From assembly GCF_025666195.1 (NCBI RefSeq), contig NZ_CP102592.1:5146001-5210000 (forward strand): a stretch of DNA of 64,000 nt. The letters run 5' to 3'. Position numbers and translations under genes: made by a program. Numbering within the stretch: the stretch's first letter is position 1; the number at the start of each line of letters is the position of its first letter. A model generated the notes under the pieces. That model was given only the letters and a program-made list of their open reading frames with translations, searched no databases and was not told the DNA's origin. This DNA comes from Xanthomonas sp. CFBP 8443. GTDB taxonomy: Bacteria; Pseudomonadota; Gammaproteobacteria; Xanthomonadales; Xanthomonadaceae. Below are positions 14,422-59,615 of the stretch, piece after piece.

Positions 14422-14555
14422 GGCCTCTGCCGCGGGCGTGGTTGCCTCGCTGCGCAGTACGACAGCGGCTGTCTGCCTGCAGCTGCGCTCTGCCCCAGGA
14501 CGCCCAGCGCTGGACTCTGGCGACCCAGGTGTTTACGGTTGCCGCGGGCTTTTTG

Positions 14556-14616
14556 TGGGAGCGACTTCAGTCGCGACGCACTATCGGTAAGGCCGTCGCG
14601 ACTGAAGTCGCTCCTA
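14556..14616. repeat. Inverted pair of GTAG-type palindromic repeats
   Basis: GGGAGCGACTTCAGTCGCGA (from 14557) is mirrored by TCGCGACTGAAGTCGCTCCT (to 14615), so the two units form one large hairpin between the rhomboid and phosphatase genes. The unit belongs to the dispersed family whose full head is GTAGGAGCG. Similar units recur at 16664, 16729, 20594, 20658, 48866, 48909, 56225 and 59480. Confidence 0.85.
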
Positions 14617-14742
14617 CGGGTTCGCCCCCGCTCGGCATGATTGCTGCCGTCCCAGTCCAATACCGGCCGCCGCCTTGGCCGCCTGCCGCGCCGCGGCGCC
14701 GGCCGTACACTGGCCGATCCGCCGTCGCCCGCCCGAGATCGC

Positions 14743-16663: not shown

Positions 16664-16751
16664 GTCGCGGCTGAAGCCGCCCCTACAAACGCGTGCATGC
16701 CGCTTGCGCCGAGCCCGCACGCGCTTCTGTAGGAGCGGCTTCAGCCACGAC
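16664..16751. repeat. Inverted pair of GTAG-type palindromes
   Basis: GTCGCGGCTGAAGCCGCC (from 16664) faces GTAGGAGCGGCTTCAGCC (from 16729), separated by about 42 bases. A matching pair with similar flanks (AACGCTTTTCGATCC-like sequence after it) occurs at 20594-20680, showing that this segment was duplicated together with the phosphatase 3' end. Confidence 0.85.
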
Positions 16752-20593: not shown

Positions 20594-20680
20594 GTCGCGG
20601 CTGAAGCCGCTGCTACAGGAGCGTGCGCCGCGTGCGCCGGTCCAGCCAGGCTCTTGTGTAGGAGCGGCTTCAGCCGCGAC
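20594..20680. repeat. Inverted pair of GTAG-type palindromes (duplicate)
   Basis: GTCGCGGCTGAAGCCGCTGC (from 20594) faces GTAGGAGCGGCTTCAGCCGC (from 20658). Arrangement and flanking sequence duplicate the pair at 16664-16751. Confidence 0.85.
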
Positions 20681-48747: not shown

Positions 48748-48865
48748 GGCTGGCGCTGCGGGGCAGCCGGGAGCGTGTTTTTCGATCGCTTGCCAGCAGG
48801 CCGTAGCAGCGACTTCATCCGGATCGCACGCCTCAGCATCTTCTGTCGAACTGGAACCGCTTTTT

Positions 48866-48931
48866 GTAGGAGCGGCTTCAGCCGCGACAGGCACTACCAG
48901 TAGCGCCCGTCGCGACTGAAGTCGCTCCTAC
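48866..48931. repeat. Inverted pair of GTAG-type palindromes
   Basis: GTAGGAGCGGCTTCAGCCGC (from 48866) faces TCGCGACTGAAGTCGCTCCT then AC (to 48931), between the esterase and the convergent GGDEF gene. It probably acts as a bidirectional terminator. Confidence 0.85.
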
Positions 48932-48982
48932 AATGTGCAATAGCACTCAAGGAAAGCCAAGCCCGCGTCGATACCGGCCGCG

Positions 48983-50164
48983 CTACCAGCCGGTCTCCTC
49001 GGCCAGCACCACCTGGTTGCCGCCGCCGACGCGCGCGCGCTGCAGCAGCGTTTCGGCGCGTTCCAGCAGCGTGGCGGCGGTGTCGGTCGGTGCGGCGAGC
49101 AGCGCGCCGACGCTGACGCTGAGCTGTTCGGACGCCATGTCGGCATGTTCGATCGCCAGCAGTTCGACCATGTCGCGCAGCGCCGGCGCCACCTGCCGCA
49201 GGTGCGCGCCGCTGGCGTCGTACAGCACCAGCGCGAAGCGATCGGCGTCGATGCGCATGGTCACATCCATCGGCCGCAGCAGGCATTGCAGTACCTCGGC
49301 CACGCCCACCACCGCGCGGTCGGCCTCGCGCGGGCCATAGCGCTGCACGAAGGCGGCGAACCCGTCCAGTTCGACCAGGATCAACGCCAGCCCGTGCTGC
49401 AGGCGCCGGGTTTCGGCCAGCGCCACCGCCAGGTGCTCGTCGAAGCGGCGGCGATCGCCCAGGCCGGTGAGCGCGTCACGCAGGGCCTCGTCGTCGCGGA
49501 CCCGGCGCTGCAGGAAGCCTTCGCGCCGAGAATGCTCGCGCAGGTAGCCGCCGACCGCGCCGATCGGCACCGCGACCCACAGCAGCCATTGCAACCGCAG
49601 GTAGGCGTCCTGCGCCGCGCCGTCCAGCAGCAGATGCGCGGCCGCGGCGCTGATCGCGCACAACGCCAGCGCCACCGCCACGCTCTGCCACAGCGCCAGA
49701 CCCAGCGGGAAGAACCCGGCGACGATCACCAGCGTCATCACCGCCGCGGCGTAGCGCAGTTCCTGCGGTGGGTAGCCGATGCTGGACAGCACCAGCCCGG
49801 TGCCGCCGACCAGCAGCAGCACCGCGGCCCGGCCCGGCCCGTGCGAGGACGCGCGATGGATCGACACCGCCGCCCACAGCAGCGCCAGCAAGGTCGCCGC
49901 GCGCACCGCCACCGCGTAACCGGCCAGGTCGGCGCCGCCCAGCCAGCCAAAATGCAGCGCGTCCCATGCCAGCAGCAGCAACGCGATCAATACCCCCAGC
50001 GAGGCCGCCACGCGCTGCGCGAAGCCCATGGTCGCGGCGGTATGGCGGCGATAGGCCAATTCCAGCGGCGGGTCGAAACGCAGCGTGGCGAAGCCGTCGC
50101 GCAACTGGCGGGCATAGGCGTCGCCGGACGGAACGTCGGGCGGCCCTTCGTGGCGATGGTGCAT
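48983..50164 (-). CDS. Membrane protein with degenerate GGDEF domain
   Basis: A 393-residue protein. Residues 45-205 hold about six membrane helices of a sensor region, followed by a diguanylate-cyclase fold (DALTGLGDRRRFDEHLAVAL). At the signature position the sequence is MRIDADRFALVL, where GGDEF should stand, so the active site lacks both glycines and the metal-binding acidic residue is displaced. It is therefore probably not a cyclase; it may bind ligand, act as an adaptor, or be decaying. The helices precede a regular-length C-terminus ending VVLAEETGW. No EAL domain is present. Confidence 0.85.
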   Translation of the reverse strand: MHHRHEGPPDVPSGDAYARQLRDGFATLRFDPPLELAYRRHTAATMGFAQRVAASLGVLIALLLLAWDALHFGWLGGADLAGYAVAVRAATLLALLWAAVSIHRASSHGPGRAAVLLLVGGTGLVLSSIGYPPQELRYAAAVMTLVIVAGFFPLGLALWQSVAVALALCAISAAAAHLLLDGAAQDAYLRLQWLLWVAVPIGAVGGYLREHSRREGFLQRRVRDDEALRDALTGLGDRRRFDEHLAVALAETRRLQHGLALILVELDGFAAFVQRYGPREADRAVVGVAEVLQCLLRPMDVTMRIDADRFALVLYDASGAHLRQVAPALRDMVELLAIEHADMASEQLSVSVGALLAAPTDTAATLLERAETLLQRARVGGGNQVVLAEETGW

Positions 50165-50408
50165 GCGATCCCCTGTAGACGCAGCGTGGCAGCACACGGT
50201 GACGGCCACACCATGCGACCGCGCGACGCACAGCGCTGACGCTGCCGGCTCCGACTTCCAGGGACATGAGAAATCACTGGCGCGCGATTGTCCACTTTTT
50301 GACCCACGGTGCACGCGTGCCGCGGCACGGCTTTCGAGCCAAACATTCAGGCAGCGCTGGCTGGCGCTACCGCGTCGCTGGCGCGTTCGCCGCCGCGCGC
50401 GGGCGCGC

Positions 50409-51956
50409 TCAGGCCTTGGCCGGCAGCGCCCACACGCTGTTGGGATCGCCCTGGCGGCCACGGCGCAAGCTGGCGCGTGCCATCTGCCAGTACGTCCAGG
50501 CCAGCGCCAACGCGCAGCCGTCGACCGCCAGCAGCAGCGCGCTGCTCCACGGCGCCACCCAGCCGCCGGCACCGCGCAGCGCGGCCAGCGGCACCAGCGC
50601 GGTGAGCGCGGCGCAGGCCAGCAGCAGTTCGTAGGCGCCGCGCGCGGTGGGGCGCAGCAGCGCCCACGCCACGCCCAGGCCGAACACCGCGTAGTACACG
50701 GTGCGTTCCTGCCCCGGCGGCAACAGGCGTGCGGCCACGAACAGCGCCGACACGCCGGCCACACAGCCCAGGCAGAGGCCGACGGTGAGCCGCGCCATCG
50801 CGTGCGTGCGCCACGGCTGCGCCTGCTGGCGCCGCTTGCGCCGCGCCTCCACCCACAGCAGATTGCCGCTGTAGAACAGGAACGCGCCGCCCAAGCCGAG
50901 CAGGAAATACAGCCAGCGCACTGGCGCCCCGCCGAAGTTGGCGTAGTGCAACGCCTGCAGCCCGCGCAGCGACGCCACGCCGGGCGACATGTCCTGCGGC
51001 GCCAGCACACGCAGCACCTTGCCGGTTGCAGCTTCCATGGCCACGCCGGCCAGCGTGTTGAGCCGGCGCTGCGGGTGCTGGCCGTAGATTTCCACGCGCG
51101 CATTGGCATCGCCGGCGTCGTGGAAGGACAGGCTTTCCGGCTCGAAGCCCGGGCTGGCCGCGCGCGCCCGCGCCAGCAGCTCGGCCACCGGCAGCGGCGG
51201 CGCCTTGATGTGCGCCGGCTGCACGTGCGGCGTCAGTTCCAGATCCGGCTCCAACACCTGCATCAGCTTGCCGTCGAACACCAGGTACTGGAATGGCGCC
51301 AGCAGCAGCACGCCCAGCGCCAGCACCGCGCCGGACCAGGCGAAGATCACATGGAACGGCAACGACAGCATGCCGACCACGTTGTGCGCGTCCTGCCACA
51401 CGCGCTTGACGTTGCGTCCCAGGCGCAGCGCGAACAGGTCCTTCAGGAACACCGGCGCGTACAGCACCACGCCACTGACCAACGCCAGGCCATAGAGGAT
51501 GCAGACCACGCCGAACAGGTAGGTGCCGAAGGTGCGCGGCAAGCCGGCGGTGAAATGCAGGTCGTACAGGAAGTCGACGAAACCGGTGCGTTGCGGCAGC
51601 TGCAGCGGTTGCCCGTCGGCGCCGGGCTGGAACTGCACGGTGCCGCCGAACGGCTGCGCCGGTGGCCCGAACGCATACAGCCGCGGCTGCGCGCCGTGCT
51701 CGCCCGGCAGGGTCAGGGTGAACGATTCGGCCAGCGCCGGATGCCGCGCCAACACCGCATCGGCCAATGCCTGCGTGGCCTGCTCCGGTGCCTGCGCCGG
51801 CGGCGCGACCGTAGCCGCCGGGCGCGGCCACTCGTTGAGCTCGTGCGTGAACACGGTGATCGCGCCGGCGTAGAACGCGATGAACAAGGCCATGCCGGCG
51901 AGCAGGCCCATCCAGCTGTGCGCCGACAGGAACTGGCGCAGGGTCGCCGCCTTCAT
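50409..51956 (-). CDS. PepSY-associated TM helix protein (PiuB-like)
   Basis: A 515-residue inner-membrane protein with four long hydrophobic segments and PepSY domains (LRQFLSAHSWMGLLAGMALF, ITVFTHELNEWPRP, NVVGMLSLPFHVIFAWSGAV, WLYFLLGLGGAFLFYSGNLL). The family is associated with TonB-dependent iron uptake and is thought to reduce or release iron from siderophores in the periplasm. It overlaps the DUF3649 gene by four bases (51953-51956) and completes the receptor operon. Confidence 0.9.
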   Translation of the reverse strand: MKAATLRQFLSAHSWMGLLAGMALFIAFYAGAITVFTHELNEWPRPAATVAPPAQAPEQATQALADAVLARHPALAESFTLTLPGEHGAQPRLYAFGPPAQPFGGTVQFQPGADGQPLQLPQRTGFVDFLYDLHFTAGLPRTFGTYLFGVVCILYGLALVSGVVLYAPVFLKDLFALRLGRNVKRVWQDAHNVVGMLSLPFHVIFAWSGAVLALGVLLLAPFQYLVFDGKLMQVLEPDLELTPHVQPAHIKAPPLPVAELLARARAASPGFEPESLSFHDAGDANARVEIYGQHPQRRLNTLAGVAMEAATGKVLRVLAPQDMSPGVASLRGLQALHYANFGGAPVRWLYFLLGLGGAFLFYSGNLLWVEARRKRRQQAQPWRTHAMARLTVGLCLGCVAGVSALFVAARLLPPGQERTVYYAVFGLGVAWALLRPTARGAYELLLACAALTALVPLAALRGAGGWVAPWSSALLLAVDGCALALAWTYWQMARASLRRGRQGDPNSVWALPAKA

Positions 51957-52225
51957 ACCGTCACCTGCACGAGGCCGCCGGCCTTCAGCGCGTACAGCAG
52001 GCCATGGCACAGCAGCGTGGCCAGGCCCAGCCACAGCCAGGCGCGCGCGCCGCTGCGGAACACGAACGCCAGCGACATCGCGCCGATCCACAGCGGGAAC
52101 ATCAGCAATAGCCAGGGCAGCGTGTGCACCTGCAGCGCGCCCGGCCACACCAGCACGCACAGCCCGACCACGCCCACCGCCAGCGGCAAGCCCAGCACGA
52201 TCGCCGCCAGCCACCTAGCCCACAT
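51953..52225 (-). CDS. Small membrane protein, DUF3649-type
   Basis: A 90-residue protein with three hydrophobic segments (WLAAIVLGLPLAVGVVGLCV, PWLLLMFPLWIGAMSLAFVF, LWLGLATLLCHGLLYAL). Its position between a DUF3325-type gene and the PepSY gene, overlapping both by a few bases, is the standard order in iron-uptake operons. Function unknown, probably assisting PepSY. Confidence 0.78.
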   Translation of the reverse strand: MWARWLAAIVLGLPLAVGVVGLCVLVWPGALQVHTLPWLLLMFPLWIGAMSLAFVFRSGARAWLWLGLATLLCHGLLYALKAGGLVQVTV

Positions 52226-52511
52226 CGGCGTGGCCTCCGCGCAGCTGCCACCAGGCGTCCAGGTACGGCAACGCGACCGCGGCGAGCATCAGCGCGCTCA
52301 GCGCCGCGAACGTCCCGGCCCACACCCCGAGCGCGACGATCGCCGCGGCCAGCGCCAGCGCCGACAGCGCCACGCCGGCCACGCGCAGCGCGTGCGCATG
52401 CCGACGCCAGGCCGGGCGCAGGCGCTGGTGCGCGGTGGCCAGGTAGAACGCCAGCGCCGCCAGCGGTGCGGCGAGCAGGTACACAGCGGTGGTCAGTGCG
52501 TGCATGGCCAT
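52215..52511 (-). CDS. Small membrane protein, DUF3325-type
   Basis: A 98-residue protein with three predicted membrane helices (TAVYLLAAPLAALAFYLATA, GVALSALALAAAIVALGVWA, FAALSALMLAAVALPYLDAW). It lies six bases after the receptor stop and overlaps the next gene by 11 bases, so it belongs to the receptor operon. A start at 52505 (second Met) is equally possible. Confidence 0.78.
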   Translation of the reverse strand: MAMHALTTAVYLLAAPLAALAFYLATAHQRLRPAWRRHAHALRVAGVALSALALAAAIVALGVWAGTFAALSALMLAAVALPYLDAWWQLRGGHADVG

Positions 52512-52517
52512 GGGCGT

Positions 52518-54800
52518 TTACCAGCGCATCTCGAAGCCGATGCCGACCACGCGCGGTGCGCCGAGGACGGCGATCGGCTGGTCGGTCCAGCGGTACTGCA
52601 GGTACTGCTTGTCGAGCAGGTTGTTGGCGAACACCCAGGCGCTCCAGTCCAGGGTCTCGTAGCCGAACTTTGCATTGACCAGCGTGCGCGAGGCCAGCTG
52701 CGGCGAGTCGGTGCCGATGTCGGTGTAGACCTTGTCGCGGAAGTTGGCGTTGAGGTTGGCGACCCAGCCGCCGCCGAAGCGCCAGTTGGCGCCCGCGGCC
52801 GCGGTCCAGCGCGGCGCGTAGGCGAACTCGCGGCCGGCATAGTCGGTGATCTCGGCGCCGACCACGGTCTTGAACTCGTCGAAGCGGGTGCGCGAATAGC
52901 CCAGCGACGCATACCAGTCGAAGCCTTCGCCGAGCCGGTGGCTGGCCTCCAGCTCGAAGCCGTACAGGTGCGCGCGACCGGCGTTGATGGTGTTGTAGTC
53001 GTAGTCGTTGAGACCGAAGAAGGCGAAGACCTGCTTGTCCTTCCAGTCGATGTAGTAGGCGTTGGCGTTGACGCTCAGGCGCCCGTCCAGCCACTGCGAG
53101 CGCAGCGCGGCCTCGTAGTTCCAGGTGTATTCCGGGTCGTAGGCGAAGGCCTGGCTGCGCGCGGTGTTGAAGCTGGAACCGCCGGAGCGGTAGCCGCGCT
53201 GCACCACCAGGCTGGCAGCCAGGTCCGGGCTCCATTCGTAGCGCGCGCCGAGCTTGGGCAGGAACGCGCTGAAGTCGCGCGCGTTGTTCGGCACCTCGCC
53301 GCTGGCCGAGGCGACGATGCCGGCCACGCCGGCGTTGATCGCATCGATCGCCTGGTACAGCGCGGTGCCCGGGCTGGCGAAGCTGGCGGGGCTCGGATAG
53401 GTGCCGACGAAGGTCGCGTTGGTACTGGAGGCCATCTCGTAGCGCTGGCGGTCGTAGCGGAAGCCGCCGATCAGCGAGAAGCCGCGGCCGACATGCCACT
53501 GCCCGTCGGCGAACAGCGCGCGGTTCTCCGAGGTGGTCGGCGACGCGCTGACGTACGACACCGGGATCACCGGCAACGCCCGCCCATACGCGGCCGAGAT
53601 CGCCGCCGCGTTGGCGGCCGGGAAGCCGGCGCCGCGCAGCAGGCGGGTGATGGTGGCGAGCGGGGTGTTCACGTCGAGCCGATTGACCAGGTCGTCCTCG
53701 GTCTCGTGCCTGGCCCAGTACGCGCCGAACAGACCCTCCACCGCCTGGCCGTCGTAGTTCAGGCGCAGCTCCTGCGAGGTGGTGCGGGTGCCGGTCACGC
53801 GCCTGGCATCGGCGATCTGCACCGCGCTGCGGTCGCCGTCCCAGGTGCTGTCGAGGTCCACCTCGTTCCACGCCGTCACCGCCGACAGCGACCAGGCCGC
53901 GTTGAGGGCGTAGTCGACGTTGAGGGTGGCGATGTCGCTGTCGGTGCGGTTGCGGTTGGGGACGTTGTCGTGGTTGACCCGACGCTTGAAGGCGCCCGCT
54001 TCGTCGGTGTGCAGGTACACGTACAGGTACGGCCCGGTGCGGTGCGCCTTGGTGTAGCCGAGCTGGACCCGCAGACCCTCGATCGCCGACGGGGTCCACA
54101 GCAGCTTGCCGCGGTAGGTCAGCGCATGCTGCGCATCGTCGGAGGCCTGGCGCGTGTCGTTCCACAGGTAGCCATCGAAGCTGCGCTGCTCGACCGAGGT
54201 GCGGAACGCCAGTTCGTCGGCCACCAATGGGCCGCCGAACGCCGCGGCCAGGGTGCGGTCGGACGGATCGGACGCCAGCACGCGCACCTTGCCTTCCCAG
54301 TCCATGGTCGGCTCGGCGGTGTGCAGGATCACCGCGCCGGCCAGCGCGTTCTCGCCCTGCAGCGTGGACTGCGGCCCGCGCAGGATCTCCACCTGCTGCA
54401 GGTCCCACATGCTCAGCGGCGCCGAACTGGTCGCGGTCCGCGGCAGCGCCGCGCCGTCCAGGTAGATGGTGGCCAGCGGCGCATCGCCGCCGCCGTCGAT
54501 GTCGCGGATACCGCGGATGGTGAAGCCCAGATCGCCGTAGCTCTGCGACACGTTGGCGGTGCGATTGAACACCTCGTAGAGGTTCTGCAGGTTTTCCTGC
54601 TCGATCCGCGCCTGAGTGGTCACCGCCACGCTGCTGGTGGTGTCCTGCAGCGTGCGCTCGCGCTTCTCGCCGGTGACGACGATGCGGTCCAGGGTGGTGG
54701 GATCGGCCGCGACCGCCTCGGCGGCCAGCGCATGCGCCGGGCTGGCCAGGACCGCGGCAATGGAAACGGACAGCAACAGCAAGTTGACGCGCACGCGCAT
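52518..54800 (-). CDS. TonB-dependent receptor of PepSY iron operon
   Basis: A 760-residue outer-membrane receptor. The signal peptide is MRVRVNLLLLSVSIAAVLAS ending HALAAEA, and the TonB-box region is TLDRIVVTGEKRERTLQDTT. The plug has SYGDLGFTIRGIRDIDGGGD, DPQQVEILRG-type WDLQQVEILRGPQSTLQGEN and ALAGAVILHTAEP. The barrel ends RVVGIGFEMRW. The adjoining DUF3325, DUF3649 and PepSY genes point to ferric-siderophore or related iron uptake. An IS110 element sits about 190 bases upstream of the start and may have altered its promoter. Confidence 0.92.
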   Translation of the reverse strand: MRVRVNLLLLSVSIAAVLASPAHALAAEAVAADPTTLDRIVVTGEKRERTLQDTTSSVAVTTQARIEQENLQNLYEVFNRTANVSQSYGDLGFTIRGIRDIDGGGDAPLATIYLDGAALPRTATSSAPLSMWDLQQVEILRGPQSTLQGENALAGAVILHTAEPTMDWEGKVRVLASDPSDRTLAAAFGGPLVADELAFRTSVEQRSFDGYLWNDTRQASDDAQHALTYRGKLLWTPSAIEGLRVQLGYTKAHRTGPYLYVYLHTDEAGAFKRRVNHDNVPNRNRTDSDIATLNVDYALNAAWSLSAVTAWNEVDLDSTWDGDRSAVQIADARRVTGTRTTSQELRLNYDGQAVEGLFGAYWARHETEDDLVNRLDVNTPLATITRLLRGAGFPAANAAAISAAYGRALPVIPVSYVSASPTTSENRALFADGQWHVGRGFSLIGGFRYDRQRYEMASSTNATFVGTYPSPASFASPGTALYQAIDAINAGVAGIVASASGEVPNNARDFSAFLPKLGARYEWSPDLAASLVVQRGYRSGGSSFNTARSQAFAYDPEYTWNYEAALRSQWLDGRLSVNANAYYIDWKDKQVFAFFGLNDYDYNTINAGRAHLYGFELEASHRLGEGFDWYASLGYSRTRFDEFKTVVGAEITDYAGREFAYAPRWTAAAGANWRFGGGWVANLNANFRDKVYTDIGTDSPQLASRTLVNAKFGYETLDWSAWVFANNLLDKQYLQYRWTDQPIAVLGAPRVVGIGFEMRW

Positions 54801-55009
54801 CGCTCCGTGGAAGCAGGATCGGACGGAGGCATGGCGGCGGCTGTGCCTGGCTGCCGGACCCGGCAGCGCTGGGCGCGGACTTTAACAGAGCGTGAAGATG
54901 GCGGCTACAAATTTGTGCGGCGTATCAAGGGCTGCCATGGCGGATCTTCGGCATTGGGTTCTCCCGCTCTTCAGGACGGAGCGGCCCTCTGTAGATACCG
55001 TCTTCCCGT

Positions 55010-55981
55010 CTAACAGGCAATGGCCTTTTGAGGATCGAAGGGCGTGTTTGATTTGAGGACGCCGTAGGCAAGATGCAGCAACTTGCGCATGGCGGCGCAG
55101 ACGATTTGCTTGCCGGCTTTGCCGCGTTCGCGCAGGCGCTGCTTCAGCGCACGGACGACCGGATTGTGGGTCATGGCGACCAGGGCCGGCATGTACAGGC
55201 CCGCGCGCAGCCGCGGGGAGCCGGTGCGGGAGATGCAGACCTGGCCCTGGCGCTTGCCGGACTCCTGCAGCCGGGGGTTGAGCCCGGCAAAGGCGGTCAC
55301 CGCCGAGGCGTGGGCGAAGCGCTCCACATTGCCAAGTTCGGCCAGCATCAACGCCGCGCTGGTGTCGGCGATCCCATCGATGCTCACCAGCAGGTCGCGC
55401 TGCCCGCGCAAGGTCGGGTCCTGGTCGATCTGGTCGTCGATGGCCCGTTCAATCTGCGCGATGCGCGCCTGCAACTGGCCGATGTTCTCCAGGAGCGAGT
55501 CGCGCACCACCGGCGCGGCCACGTCCAGGCGGTTGCGCTCCATCTGCAGCATTTGCAGCAGGTCGTCCCGGCGCCGCACCAGCGCCTTGAGCTGCTTGAG
55601 CGCCGGCGGGTCGGGCTGCCAGGGCCGCAGCTGCGCCGCATGGCGCTGGCCGTAGCTGGCGATCAGCTTGGCATCGCTGCGGTCGGTCTTGACCCGGGTC
55701 AGCTGGCTGCGTGCATACAGCGCCATCTGCGCTGGGTTGAGTACGCACACGCGGTAGCCCAACCCATGCACGAACTCGGCTAGCGCCTCGTGGTAGGTGC
55801 CGGTGGCTTCCATCACGATCCAGCTGTCCGCCTGCGCGTGCGTCTGCAGCCACGCGTGCAGGGCCTGGAAGCCCTTCGGATCGTTGGGAAGCTTGGCCTT
55901 GGTGCGGTACTTGCCGTTGGCCAGGTCGATGGCCAGATCGAAACTGCGCTTGGCGACGTCAATGCCGACGACTGGGGACAT
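55010..55981 (-). CDS. IS110-family DEDD transposase (recombinase)
   Basis: A 323-residue transposase. The N-terminal RuvC-like DEDD domain has VVGIDVAKRSFDLAI (first Asp), WIVMEATGTYHEAL (Glu), VLNPAQMALYARSQLTRVKT with DRSDAKLIASYGQ (two Asp). A coiled-coil region (DLLQMLQMERNRLDVAAPVV) is followed by the Tnp C-terminal domain: LLVSIDGIADTSAALMLAEL, FAHASAVTAFAGLNPRLQES and CISRTGSPRLRAGLYMPALV, which holds the catalytic Ser. All parts are intact and no frameshift is seen, so the element may still be active. Confidence 0.95.
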   Translation of the reverse strand: MSPVVGIDVAKRSFDLAIDLANGKYRTKAKLPNDPKGFQALHAWLQTHAQADSWIVMEATGTYHEALAEFVHGLGYRVCVLNPAQMALYARSQLTRVKTDRSDAKLIASYGQRHAAQLRPWQPDPPALKQLKALVRRRDDLLQMLQMERNRLDVAAPVVRDSLLENIGQLQARIAQIERAIDDQIDQDPTLRGQRDLLVSIDGIADTSAALMLAELGNVERFAHASAVTAFAGLNPRLQESGKRQGQVCISRTGSPRLRAGLYMPALVAMTHNPVVRALKQRLRERGKAGKQIVCAAMRKLLHLAYGVLKSNTPFDPQKAIAC

Positions 55982-56019
55982 AAGGACTCCTCCATCGGAT
56001 GGGTGATCACGATCATCGC

Positions 56020-56200
56020 TGCGCCCGGTCCTGCCTTGTGGATGCGAGTTCACGCCAGCGGCGGACTCTGGATACCGTGCGGACACCACAGGGCCAGCAG
56101 ATGGAGGGCGGGAGCCGATCTACAGCACAAGCTCGAAGCTTCAGGAGCGACTGGACTTCCCGCACCTCCCCCGATGATCAGTCGGAAGACATAACGCCTT
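56020..56200 (-). ncRNA. Putative bridge RNA of the IS110 element
   Basis: On the minus strand the region before the transposase folds into two internal-loop hairpins. The first (target loop) carries CGCTCCT (plus 56149-56143) and CTGTAG (plus 56125-56120) on either side of the hairpin AAGCT-TCG-AGCTT. These match the two strands of the occupied palindrome CGCTCCTACAG. The second (donor loop) carries ACGGTATC (plus 56078-56071) and ACAAG (plus 56039-56035) around CGCC-GCT-GGCG. These match the element's right end (54994-55001, eight of eight) and left end (56221-56225). Exact ends are unknown. Confidence 0.75.
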
Positions 56201-56225
56201 CAGGGGCGCCATGTCCAGATACAAG

Positions 56226-56244
56226 GAGCGGCTTCAGCCGCGAC
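56226..56244. repeat. Right part of GTAG palindrome split by IS110
   Basis: GAGCGGCTTCAGCCGCGAC lacks its GTAG head, which lies on the far side of the insertion at 54991-54994. Confidence 0.85.
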
Positions 56245-56418
56245 AAGCAAAGCCGGCCACTGTGCACACCGCGGAAACGTCGGGCCCAAATCCTGAGATG
56301 CGCCCGACCCGCTGCCCGTAAGCAGCGCACCATCGCGGGCAATGCGCATGGATCCAGGCGACGTAAAACCGCAGCCGCCAAGCGCTGCCGCGCATGCCGC
56401 GGCAGCGCCCGGCCGCAC

Positions 56419-58023
56419 TCAATACAGCTTGCGCTCGGCCGCCGGCGGCGGCGTCCACTGGTACAGCCAGGTTTCGGTCAGCGGCTTGCCGCCGGCGCGC
56501 AGGAACAGGCGGATGTCGATCTGCTGGGTGCCCCCATCCGGCGGCACCACGTCGAACATTGCGCGGTAGCCGGAGAGTTCGTGCAGCGGCCGCGCCGAGA
56601 CGATCTCGGTGCTGCCGCGGCTCAGCTGCAGCACCGCTTCGACCTTGGCGTCCTTGTCCTTGCCGAGCTTGGCCAGCTCGCCGCCGACGAAGTCCACCGC
56701 GAAGCGCCAGGAGAAGTGGTTGCGCTTCTGCCCGACCACGCCGCCCAGGCCCGTGCGGGTCGCCACGCAATGCGCCAGCGGCGAGGCGGCCGGCGGCTGC
56801 GCACCCCAGTACAGGCGATAGCCGAACAGCAGTTCCTGCCCGGGCTGCGGTTTGTCCTGCGGATTCCAGAACGCGACGATGTTGTCGAAGGTCTCGTCGA
56901 CGGTGGGAATCTCCACCAGCTGCACCGAGCCCTTGCCCCAGCCCTGCTTCGGCTCCACCCACAGGCACGGACGCTTCTCGTAGTACACGCCGTCGTCGTG
57001 GTAGTGGTCGAAATTGCGGTCGCGTTGCAGCAGGCCGAAACCGCGCGGGTTCTCGTCGACGAACATGTTGAAGCGCAGCTGCGGCGGATTGCACAGCGGC
57101 CGCCAGATCCATTCGCCGCCGCCGGTCCACATCGCCAGGCCGTCGGTGTCGTGGATCTCCGGGCGCCAGTCCCAGTCCATGCGACGGTCGTTCTCGCCGA
57201 CCTGGTACATGCTGGTGCACGGTCCCAGGCCCAGCCGCTCGATGGTCTTGCGCGGGTATAGCGCGCTGTCGATGTCCATCAGCAGCACGTCGCCGTTGGT
57301 GATCGCGAAGCGGTAGGCGCCGGCCACGCTCGGCGAGTCCAGCAGCGCGTACACCACCACGGTATCCGAGCCGGCCTTGGGCTGCTCCAGCCAGTAGGCG
57401 ATGAAGTCCGGGAACTCCTCCGGCCCGCCGGTGCCGGTATCGATCGCCAGTCCGCGCGCGGATTGGCCGTACTGGCCTTCCTTGCCCACCGCGCGGAAAT
57501 AGCTGGCACCGAGGAACGCGGCGAAATCGCGATCGGTGTCCTGCTTGGTGTTGAGGCGGAAGCCGGCGAAGCCCAGCTCCTTGGGCAGGTGCTTGCCCTG
57601 CAGACCGCTCTTGCCGTAGTCGAACGCGGCGCCGTCGTAGGCCAGTTCCTGCGCCTGCCCGTCGACCAGGTCAAACATGTGCACCGGCGTCTTGAAGTAC
57701 AGGCCCAGGTGGAAGAACTTGGCCTGGAACTTCGGCCCCTTGTCGACCGCCCACAGCGCATGGTCCTGGCGGTAGCGGATCGACTGGTACTGGTCCCAGT
57801 TCAGCGCTTCCAACGGTCCCGGCAGCACCCGCTTGTGGCTCTGGTACGGCGCCTGGGCCATGGCCCGGGCGTGGCCCTTGAGCCAGGCGTAGTCGAAGGG
57901 CTGCGGCTTGCCCAGGCGGCGCAGGCCGACCGCGGGGGCGGCCTGGCCGAGCATCGGCATCGCGGGCAAGCCCATGGCGGCGAAGGCGGCGGCGGCGTTC
58001 TTGAGGAAATCGCGTCGTTGCAT
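56419..58023 (-). CDS. opgD: Periplasmic glucan biosynthesis protein D
   Basis: A 534-residue Tat-exported protein (MQRRDFLKNAAAAFAAMGLP) of the OpgD/OpgG family, which shapes the backbone of osmoregulated periplasmic glucans. The family's large beta-sandwich shows conserved ATGRTDGLG-like NTKQDTDRDFAAFLGASYFR, VYALLDSPSVAGAYRFAITN and NPRGFGLLQRDRNFDHYHDD. The C-terminal Ig-like part ends ETWLYQWTPPPAAERKLY. It stands alone here; in Xanthomonas these glucans act in osmoadaptation and virulence. The start at 58023 coincides with the Tat motif; a 13-codon longer form is possible. Confidence 0.93.
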   Translation of the reverse strand: MQRRDFLKNAAAAFAAMGLPAMPMLGQAAPAVGLRRLGKPQPFDYAWLKGHARAMAQAPYQSHKRVLPGPLEALNWDQYQSIRYRQDHALWAVDKGPKFQAKFFHLGLYFKTPVHMFDLVDGQAQELAYDGAAFDYGKSGLQGKHLPKELGFAGFRLNTKQDTDRDFAAFLGASYFRAVGKEGQYGQSARGLAIDTGTGGPEEFPDFIAYWLEQPKAGSDTVVVYALLDSPSVAGAYRFAITNGDVLLMDIDSALYPRKTIERLGLGPCTSMYQVGENDRRMDWDWRPEIHDTDGLAMWTGGGEWIWRPLCNPPQLRFNMFVDENPRGFGLLQRDRNFDHYHDDGVYYEKRPCLWVEPKQGWGKGSVQLVEIPTVDETFDNIVAFWNPQDKPQPGQELLFGYRLYWGAQPPAASPLAHCVATRTGLGGVVGQKRNHFSWRFAVDFVGGELAKLGKDKDAKVEAVLQLSRGSTEIVSARPLHELSGYRAMFDVVPPDGGTQQIDIRLFLRAGGKPLTETWLYQWTPPPAAERKLY

Positions 58024-58322
58024 GGGCCGGATCGAAGCGGAAAGGGGCTCCATCATAGACAAGCGGCGTTAAACGCGAGAGTTGGGGCGTGTCATCGATT
58101 CACGAGCAGATCGCGTTGGGTCTGTCAGGTCGCGAGCCGCTGCCGCACCTGACGGGCCCGCGCAGCGCGCTGCCGGCCTGACAGGCCCAACCCGCCCGGC
58201 CGCTCTCGTGCGCCCTCGACGCTACGTCATCGCCGGGCGGAACCATCCTCCACGCCTTTCACTCGTGCTTGCCTCGCGACGCACAAGAGCGGCGCGAGCT
58301 GCTTGGGAATTGATGAGGCGCC
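58024..58322. other. Intergenic region with long imperfect hairpin
   Basis: This 299-base gap upstream of opgD includes the inverted repeat TTGGGTCTGTCAGG (58116-58129) and CCTGACAGGCCCAA (58177-58190), which pair over 14 bases with a single G-U wobble in RNA. Between them TCAGGT and ACCTGA also pair. It could be a terminator for the upstream gene, a leader structure for opgD, or an unclassified repeat. Confidence 0.55.
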
Positions 58323-59417
58323 CTAGGGCGTCGCGCAGGCCCCTTGCAACGCCAGCGCCGCGGCGTGTTGGCACAGGAAGCTGCGCTGCTGCGCCGGGTC
58401 GTCGCCGCCGGCGTAGTCCAGCAACGTCCATTGCTCCTCGGCCTGCATGTTCTGGCCCGGCGCCAGGGTCCGGTACGGCGCGTGCACTTCGATTTCGAGC
58501 AGGCCGCCGCCCGGATCCGCTGCCGACGCATCCAGGTAGAACTCGACCTGGCCCTGTTCGGAATGGATACGCTCACGCGGTTGGTGGGCGAAGCGGATCA
58601 CCCAGGCCTGGCCGCCGGCGAAGGCAGCGATCCAGCCCGCCGACGGCTGCAGCAAAAGCTTGCCGCGCTGCCCAGCGCTGCCAGGCGGCGCGGCAGCCAG
58701 CGCCATCATCCCGTCCTGCAGCGCGTACTGCGGCGGCGCGTAGCCGGCGCCATCGCTGGGCTGCACGCGGATATCGGCGGCAGCGGCGACCGGCACCAGC
58801 ACCCGCGTGGACGACGGCACCCGGGTGTTGAACCACAGATCCCAGGCCACTGCGGTCTTGCGCACGTTCTGCGCCTGGACCTGCAGCACCACGCTGTCGC
58901 CGCGCTGCGGCGACAGCGCGAAAGTCTTGTGCAAGCGCACGCCGCTGACCGGACTGTCCACGCCGCGCAGCCGAAGACGGCGCGGGGAGCGCTCGGTAAC
59001 GGTGGTGGTGGCGAAGCTCAGGTACGGATCCGGCGGCCAGATCGCGTGCGCGGCGCGGCGCGCCGGATTGGCGTCCTGGTGCTGCCACCAGGCGCTTTGC
59101 GGGCCGACCCAGACGTCGTGGCCGAAATAGGGGATGTCGTTGGCCGCCGCGCTGACGGCCGGCAGCGGCTGGCGCTGCACCGCTTCGCCGACCTTGATCA
59201 GGTTCGGCCCGCCGCTGCGCTGGAAGCCCAGCACGCGCCCGCCCAGGGTCGGCGTGACCGTGAGCCGGATCACGCCGTTGTCCGTGACCCACGGCGCCGG
59301 CGCGCCTGCGCCGGGCGGCGTTGCCGGTGGCGCGGCCACGCCGGACGCAGATGCGCCGAGCAGCGCGAGCGCGACCGCGCACGGCCGCCACCATCCATTC
59401 TGCTTGTCTGCGCGCAT
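58323..59417 (-). CDS. Secreted DUF4380-type protein
   Basis: A 364-residue protein with signal peptide (MRADKQNGWWRPCAVALALL then GASASGVAA). The mature part resembles DUF4380/galactose-mutarotase-like beta sandwiches: NGVIRLTVTPTLGGRVLGFQ, FGHDVWVGPQSAW, RLRLRGVDSPVSGVRLHKTF and NVRKTAVAWDLWFNTRVP. This fold often binds or modifies carbohydrates, and the neighbouring OpgD suggests an envelope-polysaccharide role, but I have no direct function. A 55-codon upstream extension is Arg-rich and rejected. Confidence 0.82.
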   Translation of the reverse strand: MRADKQNGWWRPCAVALALLGASASGVAAPPATPPGAGAPAPWVTDNGVIRLTVTPTLGGRVLGFQRSGGPNLIKVGEAVQRQPLPAVSAAANDIPYFGHDVWVGPQSAWWQHQDANPARRAAHAIWPPDPYLSFATTTVTERSPRRLRLRGVDSPVSGVRLHKTFALSPQRGDSVVLQVQAQNVRKTAVAWDLWFNTRVPSSTRVLVPVAAAADIRVQPSDGAGYAPPQYALQDGMMALAAAPPGSAGQRGKLLLQPSAGWIAAFAGGQAWVIRFAHQPRERIHSEQGQVEFYLDASAADPGGGLLEIEVHAPYRTLAPGQNMQAEEQWTLLDYAGGDDPAQQRSFLCQHAAALALQGACATP

Positions 59418-59478: not shown

Positions 59479-59501
59479 TGTGGGAGCGACTTCAGTCGCG
59501 A
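59479..59501. repeat. Single GTAG-family palindrome
   Basis: TGTGGGAGCGACTTCAGTCG then CGA. It has lost the GTAG head (GTGG) and is not paired; it lies between the kinase stop and the DUF4380 start. Confidence 0.65.
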
Positions 59502-59615
59502 TGGGCGTGACCGGGACAGCCATCGGCGACGGCTGACCGGAGATTTCCGAAGTCGCCACCAGCGCAGCAGCATCCGACTCAAAAGCGCTGGCTTTTCACT
59601 GCTACCCCGCCGGCC

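What the first reader, a model, noticed from the sequence alone, without database searches (positions are those of the whole stretch)
54991..56244. IS110 element with a complete, self-consistent bridge RNA
The minus-strand region before the transposase folds into two hairpin loops whose guides can be read by eye. The target loop contains CGCTCCT and CTGTAG, which pair with opposite strands of the occupied site CGCTCCTACAG. The donor loop contains ACGGTATC (8 of 8 with the element's right end) and ACAAG (5 of 5 with the left end). Stems AAGCT/AGCTT and CGCC/GGCG sit between the guide pairs, and the core dinucleotide is CT, as in IS621. This is what IS110 bridge RNAs look like (established for the family). 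The sequence match here is seen directly; expression is inferred.
Basis: partly seen in the sequence, partly recalled or inferred. Interest (0 to 1): 0.85.

Follow-up and report, generated by a model that had tools for sequence, protein, structure and literature searches.

The report
REP-seeking IS110 element with guide RNA
A small jumping gene carries its own guide RNA that aims it at a repeat present in hundreds of copies in its host, and relatives in other bacteria carry guides that match the different repeats they sit in; this is a well-supported new case of a recently discovered kind of RNA-guided element.

Summary
The finding is right and its reading holds. Window 54993-56223 (minus strand) is a 1231-bp IS110-group element: a 323-aa recombinase related to IS621 preceded by a two-loop bridge RNA. 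A covariance model built only from 18 relatives outside the genus finds that RNA once in the window, at 56223-56021, E 7.8e-42; its helices show compensatory change. All 7 copies in the genome lie at the same base of a REP palindrome (711 copies at up to 2 mismatches). Over 26 hand-picked lineages the left target guide equals the element's own site in 171 of 182 cells, 180 with wobble; 20,000 permutations reached at most 138 and 153. Of three relatives found afterwards two could be tested and both fit. Bridge RNAs and REP targeting by IS110 elements are published, so this is a new member, not a new kind. Expression and activity are inferred.

The parts
54993..56223 (-). whole IS110-group element, 1231 bp counting one core CT (LE at 56223, RE at 54993)
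   Evidence: 7 copies in the genome share these ends
55010..55981 (-). IS110 recombinase, 323 aa, PF01548 + PF02371; DEDD and the catalytic serine present
56021..56223 (-). bridge RNA (model R1 match over its full length)
   Evidence: 135.9 bits, E 7.8e-42
56143..56152 (-). left target guide AGUCGCUCCU (last two bases pair with the core)
56120..56125 (-). right target guide CUGUAG
56126..56142 (-). stem-loop between the target guides (AAGCU/AGCUU)
   Evidence: helix 5: 2 of 4 pairs with change on both sides, 99.2% of cells paired
56071..56078 (-). left donor guide ACGGUAUC, matches the right end
56035..56039 (-). right donor guide ACAAG, matches the left end
54993..54994 (-). core dinucleotide CT at the right end
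56224..56225 (-). core dinucleotide CT at the left end
56224..56244 (+). longer part of the interrupted REP (AGGAGCGGCTTCAGCCGCGAC)
54990..54992 (+). short part of the interrupted REP (TGT of the TGTAG head)

Best explanation
This is an IS110-group (IS621-like) insertion sequence that moves by bridge-RNA-guided recombination. Inferred from IS621: it leaves as a circle whose joined ends restore a promoter (TTGCCT-17-TATCTT, the -10 spanning the core); the circle transcribes the noncoding region into a bridge RNA; one loop pairs with the element's own joined ends, the other with the target; a recombinase tetramer exchanges strands at the CT core. Shown here by sequence: the target loop is set to the GTAG head and first stem arm of the host's REP palindrome, every copy in this genome lies at that base, and guide and site change together across relatives.
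For: Recombinase families and PDB relatives IS621 and ISCro4. DEDD and serine present in 27 of the 28 sequences aligned, this one included; the exception is the decayed L048 (residues named, mapped through the alignment). An RNA model without any member of the genus finds the region once in 64 kb. 46 pairs over 31 sequences: 95.6% of cells paired, 26 pairs with change on both sides, 0 of 500 shuffles as high (this alignment was fitted to the model); RAlifold on the unfitted alignment gave 15 of 33 pairs with double changes (RNAalifold). 7 of 7 own copies at the same REP base; 49 of 54 sites in the genus match the REP pattern when the flanks are read together. Guide-site match 171/182 exact, 180/182 with wobble over 26 of 88 loci, one per lineage; 10 distinct guides outside the genus 69/70 and 70/70; the three positions further out show nothing (14/78, 7159 of 20,000 permutations as high). 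Relatives fetched afterwards, L198 and L200, fit.
Against: No expression, circle or binding data. 9 of 182 cells need wobble and 2 fail, both in L092. Site exceptions: L046 (GCAG head), L172 (one mismatch in the left guide), L091 (right guide ATAG at a GTAG site), L100 (guide core CG, not CT). The promoter -35 lies in the last codons of the gene, so its conservation may be coding. The single-sequence fold is weak (z -1.28).
Confidence: 0.94

Rival explanations
1. The recombinase finds the REP by protein recognition of its hairpin or GTAG head, and the match between noncoding region and site is a by-product.
For: 53 of 54 sites read in the genus are REPs or partial REPs; other IS families also target REPs.
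Against: The left guide matches the site at exactly one offset: 0.96 at offset 0, at most 0.42 at other offsets from -20 to +20, over 12 rows with 11 or 12 guides. L150 sits at a REP with only one intact arm. In L200 both the right guide and the repeat head read ATAG.
Confidence: 0.03
2. The noncoding region is only a structured leader that controls the transposase, as the 5' UTR of ISPpu9 does.
For: ISPpu9 has a folded 5' UTR and two small RNAs that regulate tnp (passages read).
Against: Does not predict pairing with target and donor ends, nor the covariation. Both roles could coexist.
Confidence: 0.02
3. A bridge-RNA element by descent, but no longer active in this strain.
For: One of 7 copies (L006) has a 1-base deletion that splits the gene; no activity data.
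Against: Five of 7 copies are identical over the 1240 bases searched, ends included, which points to recent movement, though gene conversion could also do this.
Confidence: 0.1

Closest known systems
IS621 (Escherichia coli; Durrant et al. 2024, PMC11208160; Hiraizumi et al. 2024, PMC11208158)
   Same: Same recombinase family (E 1.1e-64), bridge RNA upstream of the gene, two loops in the order target then donor, CT core, promoter restored in the circle, REP target whose site ends in CTAC (ATCAGGCCTAC), one wobble between natural guide and natural target (rG:dT at position 4).
   Different: Different guides and REP; the wobble here is U against G at position 2 of the 11-base target. Percent identity of the recombinases was not computed.
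ISPpu9 and ISPpu10 (Pseudomonas putida), ISPa11 (P. aeruginosa)
   Same: IS110-family elements that sit in REPs: 7 of 7, 7 of 7 and 6 of 6 copies associated in the table of PMC1525189; ISPpu9 leaves an AG direct repeat at its REP site, the same dinucleotide in the REP orientation as the core here.
   Different: ISPpu9 has one RNA antisense to the leader and one downstream of tnp; ISPa11 is of the IS1111 type with its RNA downstream. Here the RNA is upstream and in sense.
ISCro4 (PDB 9t56)
   Same: Best-scoring solved recombinase by sequence (E 2.8e-65).
   Different: Its guides and target were not looked at here.

Membership tests
IS110 family, IS110 group | DEDD_Tnp_IS110 and Transposase_20 domains | tested here: met
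   (115.5 and 75.4 bits, cut-offs 29 and 21.3); NF033542 238 bits, cut-off 140
IS110 family, IS110 group | D, E, D, D and the catalytic serine | tested here: met
   D8, E58, D100, D103, S241 in this protein and in 27 of the 28 sequences aligned, this one included; L048 is decayed
IS110 family, IS110 group | long noncoding end upstream of the gene (LE longer than RE), rather than downstream as in IS1111 | tested here: met
   242 bases upstream (56223-55982), 17 after the stop including the core; rule
IS621-type bridge RNA | 5' stem-loop then two stem-loops with internal loops, target first, donor second | tested here: met
   description of IS621
IS621-type bridge RNA | guides pair with both strands of target and donor around a shared core | tested here: met
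   target; donor: read, where the donor guides and ends hardly vary, so covariation could not be tested
IS621-type bridge RNA | promoter restored across the RE-LE junction | tested here: inconclusive
   TTGCCT-17-TATCTT; TTGC kept at 17 nt in 25 of 27 and at 18 nt in 2 of 27 sequences with a right end, this one included, but it overlaps coding sequence; no expression test
IS621-type bridge RNA | RNA is made and bound by the recombinase; insertion follows the guide | not testable with these tools
   needs RNA sequencing and a recombination assay

The most novel reading that the evidence does not exclude
A branch of bridge-RNA elements has specialised on the GTAG head of RAYT-dependent REP palindromes and has followed those repeats from genus to genus: the right guide is held on GTAG (changing to ATAG where the repeat head does), the left guide is rewritten to the local REP stem, and wobble bases are kept at positions where the local REPs are polymorphic, so that one RNA covers several REP subtypes. 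The host's own REP transposase would thus supply the element with hundreds of landing sites, presumably mostly harmless ones.
Probability: 0.35. Interest if true: 0.6.

Novelty: new member of a known kind. Interest (0 to 1): 0.45.

Why it matters
It gives natural guide-target pairs over several genera, with guide turnover on a fixed scaffold, against a target family of hundreds of copies per genome in many hosts. That makes two questions testable from sequence and simple assays: how bridge RNAs change their guides in nature, and whether wobble positions in natural guides are a means of covering variable repeats. For users of bridge recombinases it offers orthologues with readable natural guides.

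Tried and rejected
Rfam scan of 53000-58500: no bridge-RNA family matched; the only hit (mir-492, E 0.069, below its cut-off) is in the neighbouring receptor gene and is taken as chance. Folding the single strand: z -1.28. Orthologous empty site for the window copy: 20 of 20 genomes match the MdoG side, but only the own genome aligned across the insertion point; reading the two flanks together gives the REP instead. Preference for the base before GTAG: elements with guide C use CGTAG in 23 of 32 sites of G009 and G010, against pool fractions of 0.46 and 0.64; one-sided combined p 0.046, neither genome significant alone (p 0.14 and 0.16); not claimed. Whether that guide base follows the host's pool: guide U goes with pools almost all TGTAG (350:3, 431:12, 531:7 in G000, G008, G018), but guide C is found in G009 (153:131) and G012 (10:5), where TGTAG is the commoner, as well as in G010 (119:208) and G011 (72:107); so not a clean rule, and only two clades. 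Preference for the GAC REP subtype: 2 of 54 sites (L056, L174; L157 not counted), p 0.15; not claimed (my count of this gave 0 through an index error and is void). REP abundance and presence of the element: p 0.36, no association. Hairpin energy of target sites outside the genus: 17 of 29 have 5 or fewer of 200 mononucleotide shuffles as low, the rest 6 to 144; supportive, not decisive. Convergence of the CGCTC guide in P. putida-type relatives and the window genus: the tree does not force it. Rhodoferax host of L080: 0 copies of the repeat pattern, so for that host the repeat status of the site is not shown.

Full report
What is there. On the minus strand the window holds a 323-codon recombinase gene (55981-55010) with the two IS110 domains and a match to the NCBI model named 'IS110 family RNA-guided transposase'. 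The solved proteins it matches are ISCro4 and IS621. The five catalytic residues named for IS621 (PMC11208158, passages) are present here and in 27 of the 28 sequences aligned, this one included; the exception, L048, is a decayed copy. A search of the own genome finds 7 copies: five identical, one with a single-base deletion that splits the gene, one 98% identical. All have the ends TGTATCTGGACATGG and GACGGTATCT, so the element is 54993-56223.

Where it goes. In 7 of 7 copies the left flank ends GTCGCGGCTGAAGCCGCTCCT and the right flank starts ACA. Read together and turned round this is TGTAGGAGCGGCTTCAGCCGCGAC, a palindromic repeat with 711 places in this genome at up to 2 mismatches and none for the reversed control. 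It has the GTAG head and the inserted GA described for the REPs of Xanthomonas and Pseudomonas that belong to tyrosine transposases, RAYTs (PMC2817692, passages). The core CT of the element is the AG of that GTAG. Over the genus, 54 sites with both flanks were read; left out were the split own copy (its flanks were read), L048 and the fragment in L175. Of the 54, 49 match the REP pattern, 3 have one or two mismatches (L172, L161, L046), one has only one REP arm (L150), and one is the duplicated left end (L157). Of 20 genomes of the genus, 18 have the repeat and the same 18 have a match to Y1_Tnp, the family that includes RAYTs (membership recalled; IS200-type transposases also belong, and G019's 31 matches are probably such). 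The two without either (G001, G013) also lack the element, which is in 8 of 20, in G019 only as a fragment. REP abundance does not predict the element (p 0.36 over the 20).

The RNA. Alignment of the noncoding ends of relatives (recombinases about 52 to 100% identical) shows conserved blocks and variable guides. To avoid circularity a covariance model was built from 18 relatives outside the genus only. It finds one match in the whole window, both strands, up to E 10, at 56223-56021 minus. Part of that score is sequence similarity. The structure itself is supported by compensatory changes: 26 of 46 pairs with change on both sides, 95.6% of cells paired, against 28.8 to 46.0% when partners are slid by 1 to 3 columns (alignment fitted to the model); and 15 of 33 pairs in the unfitted RNAalifold run. 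The layout, a 5' stem-loop and then a target loop and a donor loop, is that described for IS621 (section read).

Guides and sites. For 88 loci the guide columns and the flanks were listed: 129 loci had a recombinase match, 95 had the upstream end, 7 of these were second fetches of own copies. For the test I picked one row per lineage, 26 of 88, replacing the contig-edge row L073 by L075. Over the 7 bases before the core the guide equals the site in 171 of 182 cells, 180 of 182 if rU:dG and rG:dT count; permuting sites among lineages gave at most 138 and 153 in 20,000 trials. The three bases further out show no signal. With the 10 distinct guides outside the genus the figures are 69 of 70 and 70 of 70 (maximum of permutations 63 and 67). 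The two failing cells belong to L092. Other departures are listed under evidence against.

A test on data not used before. A search of 297 genomes of the family gave three relatives outside the genus at E 1e-60 or better. L199 is truncated and has no noncoding end. In L198 the guide AGCCGCTCCT equals the site over 10 bases. In L200, only 45% identical in the recombinase, the guide GCGCACCCT equals the site over 9 bases, and the right guide reads ATAG, where of the 88 loci all but two read GTAG (L048 GTGG, L091 ATAG, loci with the same noncoding end counted apart); the site of L200 reads CTAT, and a partner repeat beside it has the head ATAG. So the right guide can change with the site too, on one example. 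L091, with ATAG at a GTAG site, is a counter-example.

Targets of the relatives. The sites outside the genus begin GTAGGGTGG, GTAGGATGG, GTAGGAGCGG, GTAGGGGCG, GTAGCCGC and the like. A pattern for the first kind has 6 to 273 places in 9 of 10 host genomes and 0 in the control; the Rhodoferax metagenome assembly has none. A pattern for GTAGGNTGGGT repeats has 4, 14 and 10 places in the hosts of L072, L085 and L086, control 0; all 4 in the host of L072 read GTAGGCTGGGT, the exact complement of that element's guide, while its own site differs by one wobble. Two targets are REPs tabulated with their RAYTs: GTAGGGTGGGCTTCAGCCCACC (Haemophilus influenzae in the table; sites of L080 and L082 here) and TGTAGGAGCGGCCTTGTGTCGCGAA (P. 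putida W619; sites of L095, L096, L098 and L099). IS621's own target ATCAGGCCTAC also ends in CTAC. The core thus stays on the REP head while the left guide differs. On the best tree of 24 recombinases the guide class needs 8 changes; strongly supported branches alone force 2 for the commonest class; L086, with a changed guide, groups with three unchanged ones at full support.

Wobble. In the genus the left guide has U at position 2 of the 11-base target (six bases before the core). The common REP has C there and a minor subtype has T (20 of about 353 in the own genome). A U can pair with both. Two of 54 insertions are in the minor subtype, not more than expected (p 0.15), so tolerance is consistent but preference is not shown. 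IS621 has the like situation: guide G, natural target A, read in the paper as an rG:dT pair (PMC11208160, section 9). That wobble positions are kept to cover variable REPs is my inference.

Mechanism, shown and inferred. Shown by sequence: recombinase, RNA fold, guide pairs, common core, sites. Inferred from IS621 and its relatives: circle formation, promoter in the junction, RNA binding, strand exchange through the serine. The junction would read TTGCCT-17-TATCTT with the -10 across the core.

What is known already. Bridge RNAs of IS110 elements with covarying guides: PMC11208160 (outline, sections 6, 9 and 12, passages). seekRNA: PMC11187229 (passages and one section). REPs as targets of IS110 elements in Pseudomonas, Sinorhizobium and others: PMC1525189 (passages; the word Xanthomonas does not occur in its main text). 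ISPpu9: PMC8450116 (passages). My searches for an account of an IS110 bridge RNA on the REPs of this genus, or of guides following REPs, showed none among the titles and abstracts listed; two searches listed only 15 of 206 and 20 of 197 papers, the library lacks most subscription papers, and ISfinder was not available, so the element may have a name.

Verdict. Confirmed, ordinary in kind, unusually complete in evidence. The part beyond the expected is the specialisation of the whole branch seen here on GTAG-headed REPs.

Noticed in passing
L157 (G010:C1:3586400-3589400), 83 bp: The first 83 bp of the element, up to and including the core bases of its own left guide, are exactly duplicated in front of a full copy. 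The guide DNA equals half a target, so this is either self-insertion followed by recombination or slippage between the two CGCTCCT stretches; the two cannot be told apart here.
   Followed up: partly
L150 (G018:C1:4347000-4350000): Copy at a REP of which only the guide-matching arm is present; either the palindrome is not needed or the other arm was lost later.
   Followed up: no
G019 (locus L196 and further places): 31 Y1_Tnp matches in one genome; 21 of those listed are near-identical in score and each is marked with one in-frame TAG.
   Followed up: no
window 14554-14618, 16664-16751, 20594-20680, 48865-48932, 59479-59502: Further REPs in the window, eight of these nine matches as inverted pairs (10 matches at up to 3 mismatches including the interrupted one, 0.02 expected).
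   Followed up: no
window 52518-54800 and 56419-58062: The element lies between a TonB-dependent receptor gene and an mdoG-like glucan gene and breaks neither.
   Followed up: no
window 50163-55013, plus strand: A 1616-aa open frame opposite the receptor gene; taken as an effect of high G+C, not tested.
   Followed up: no
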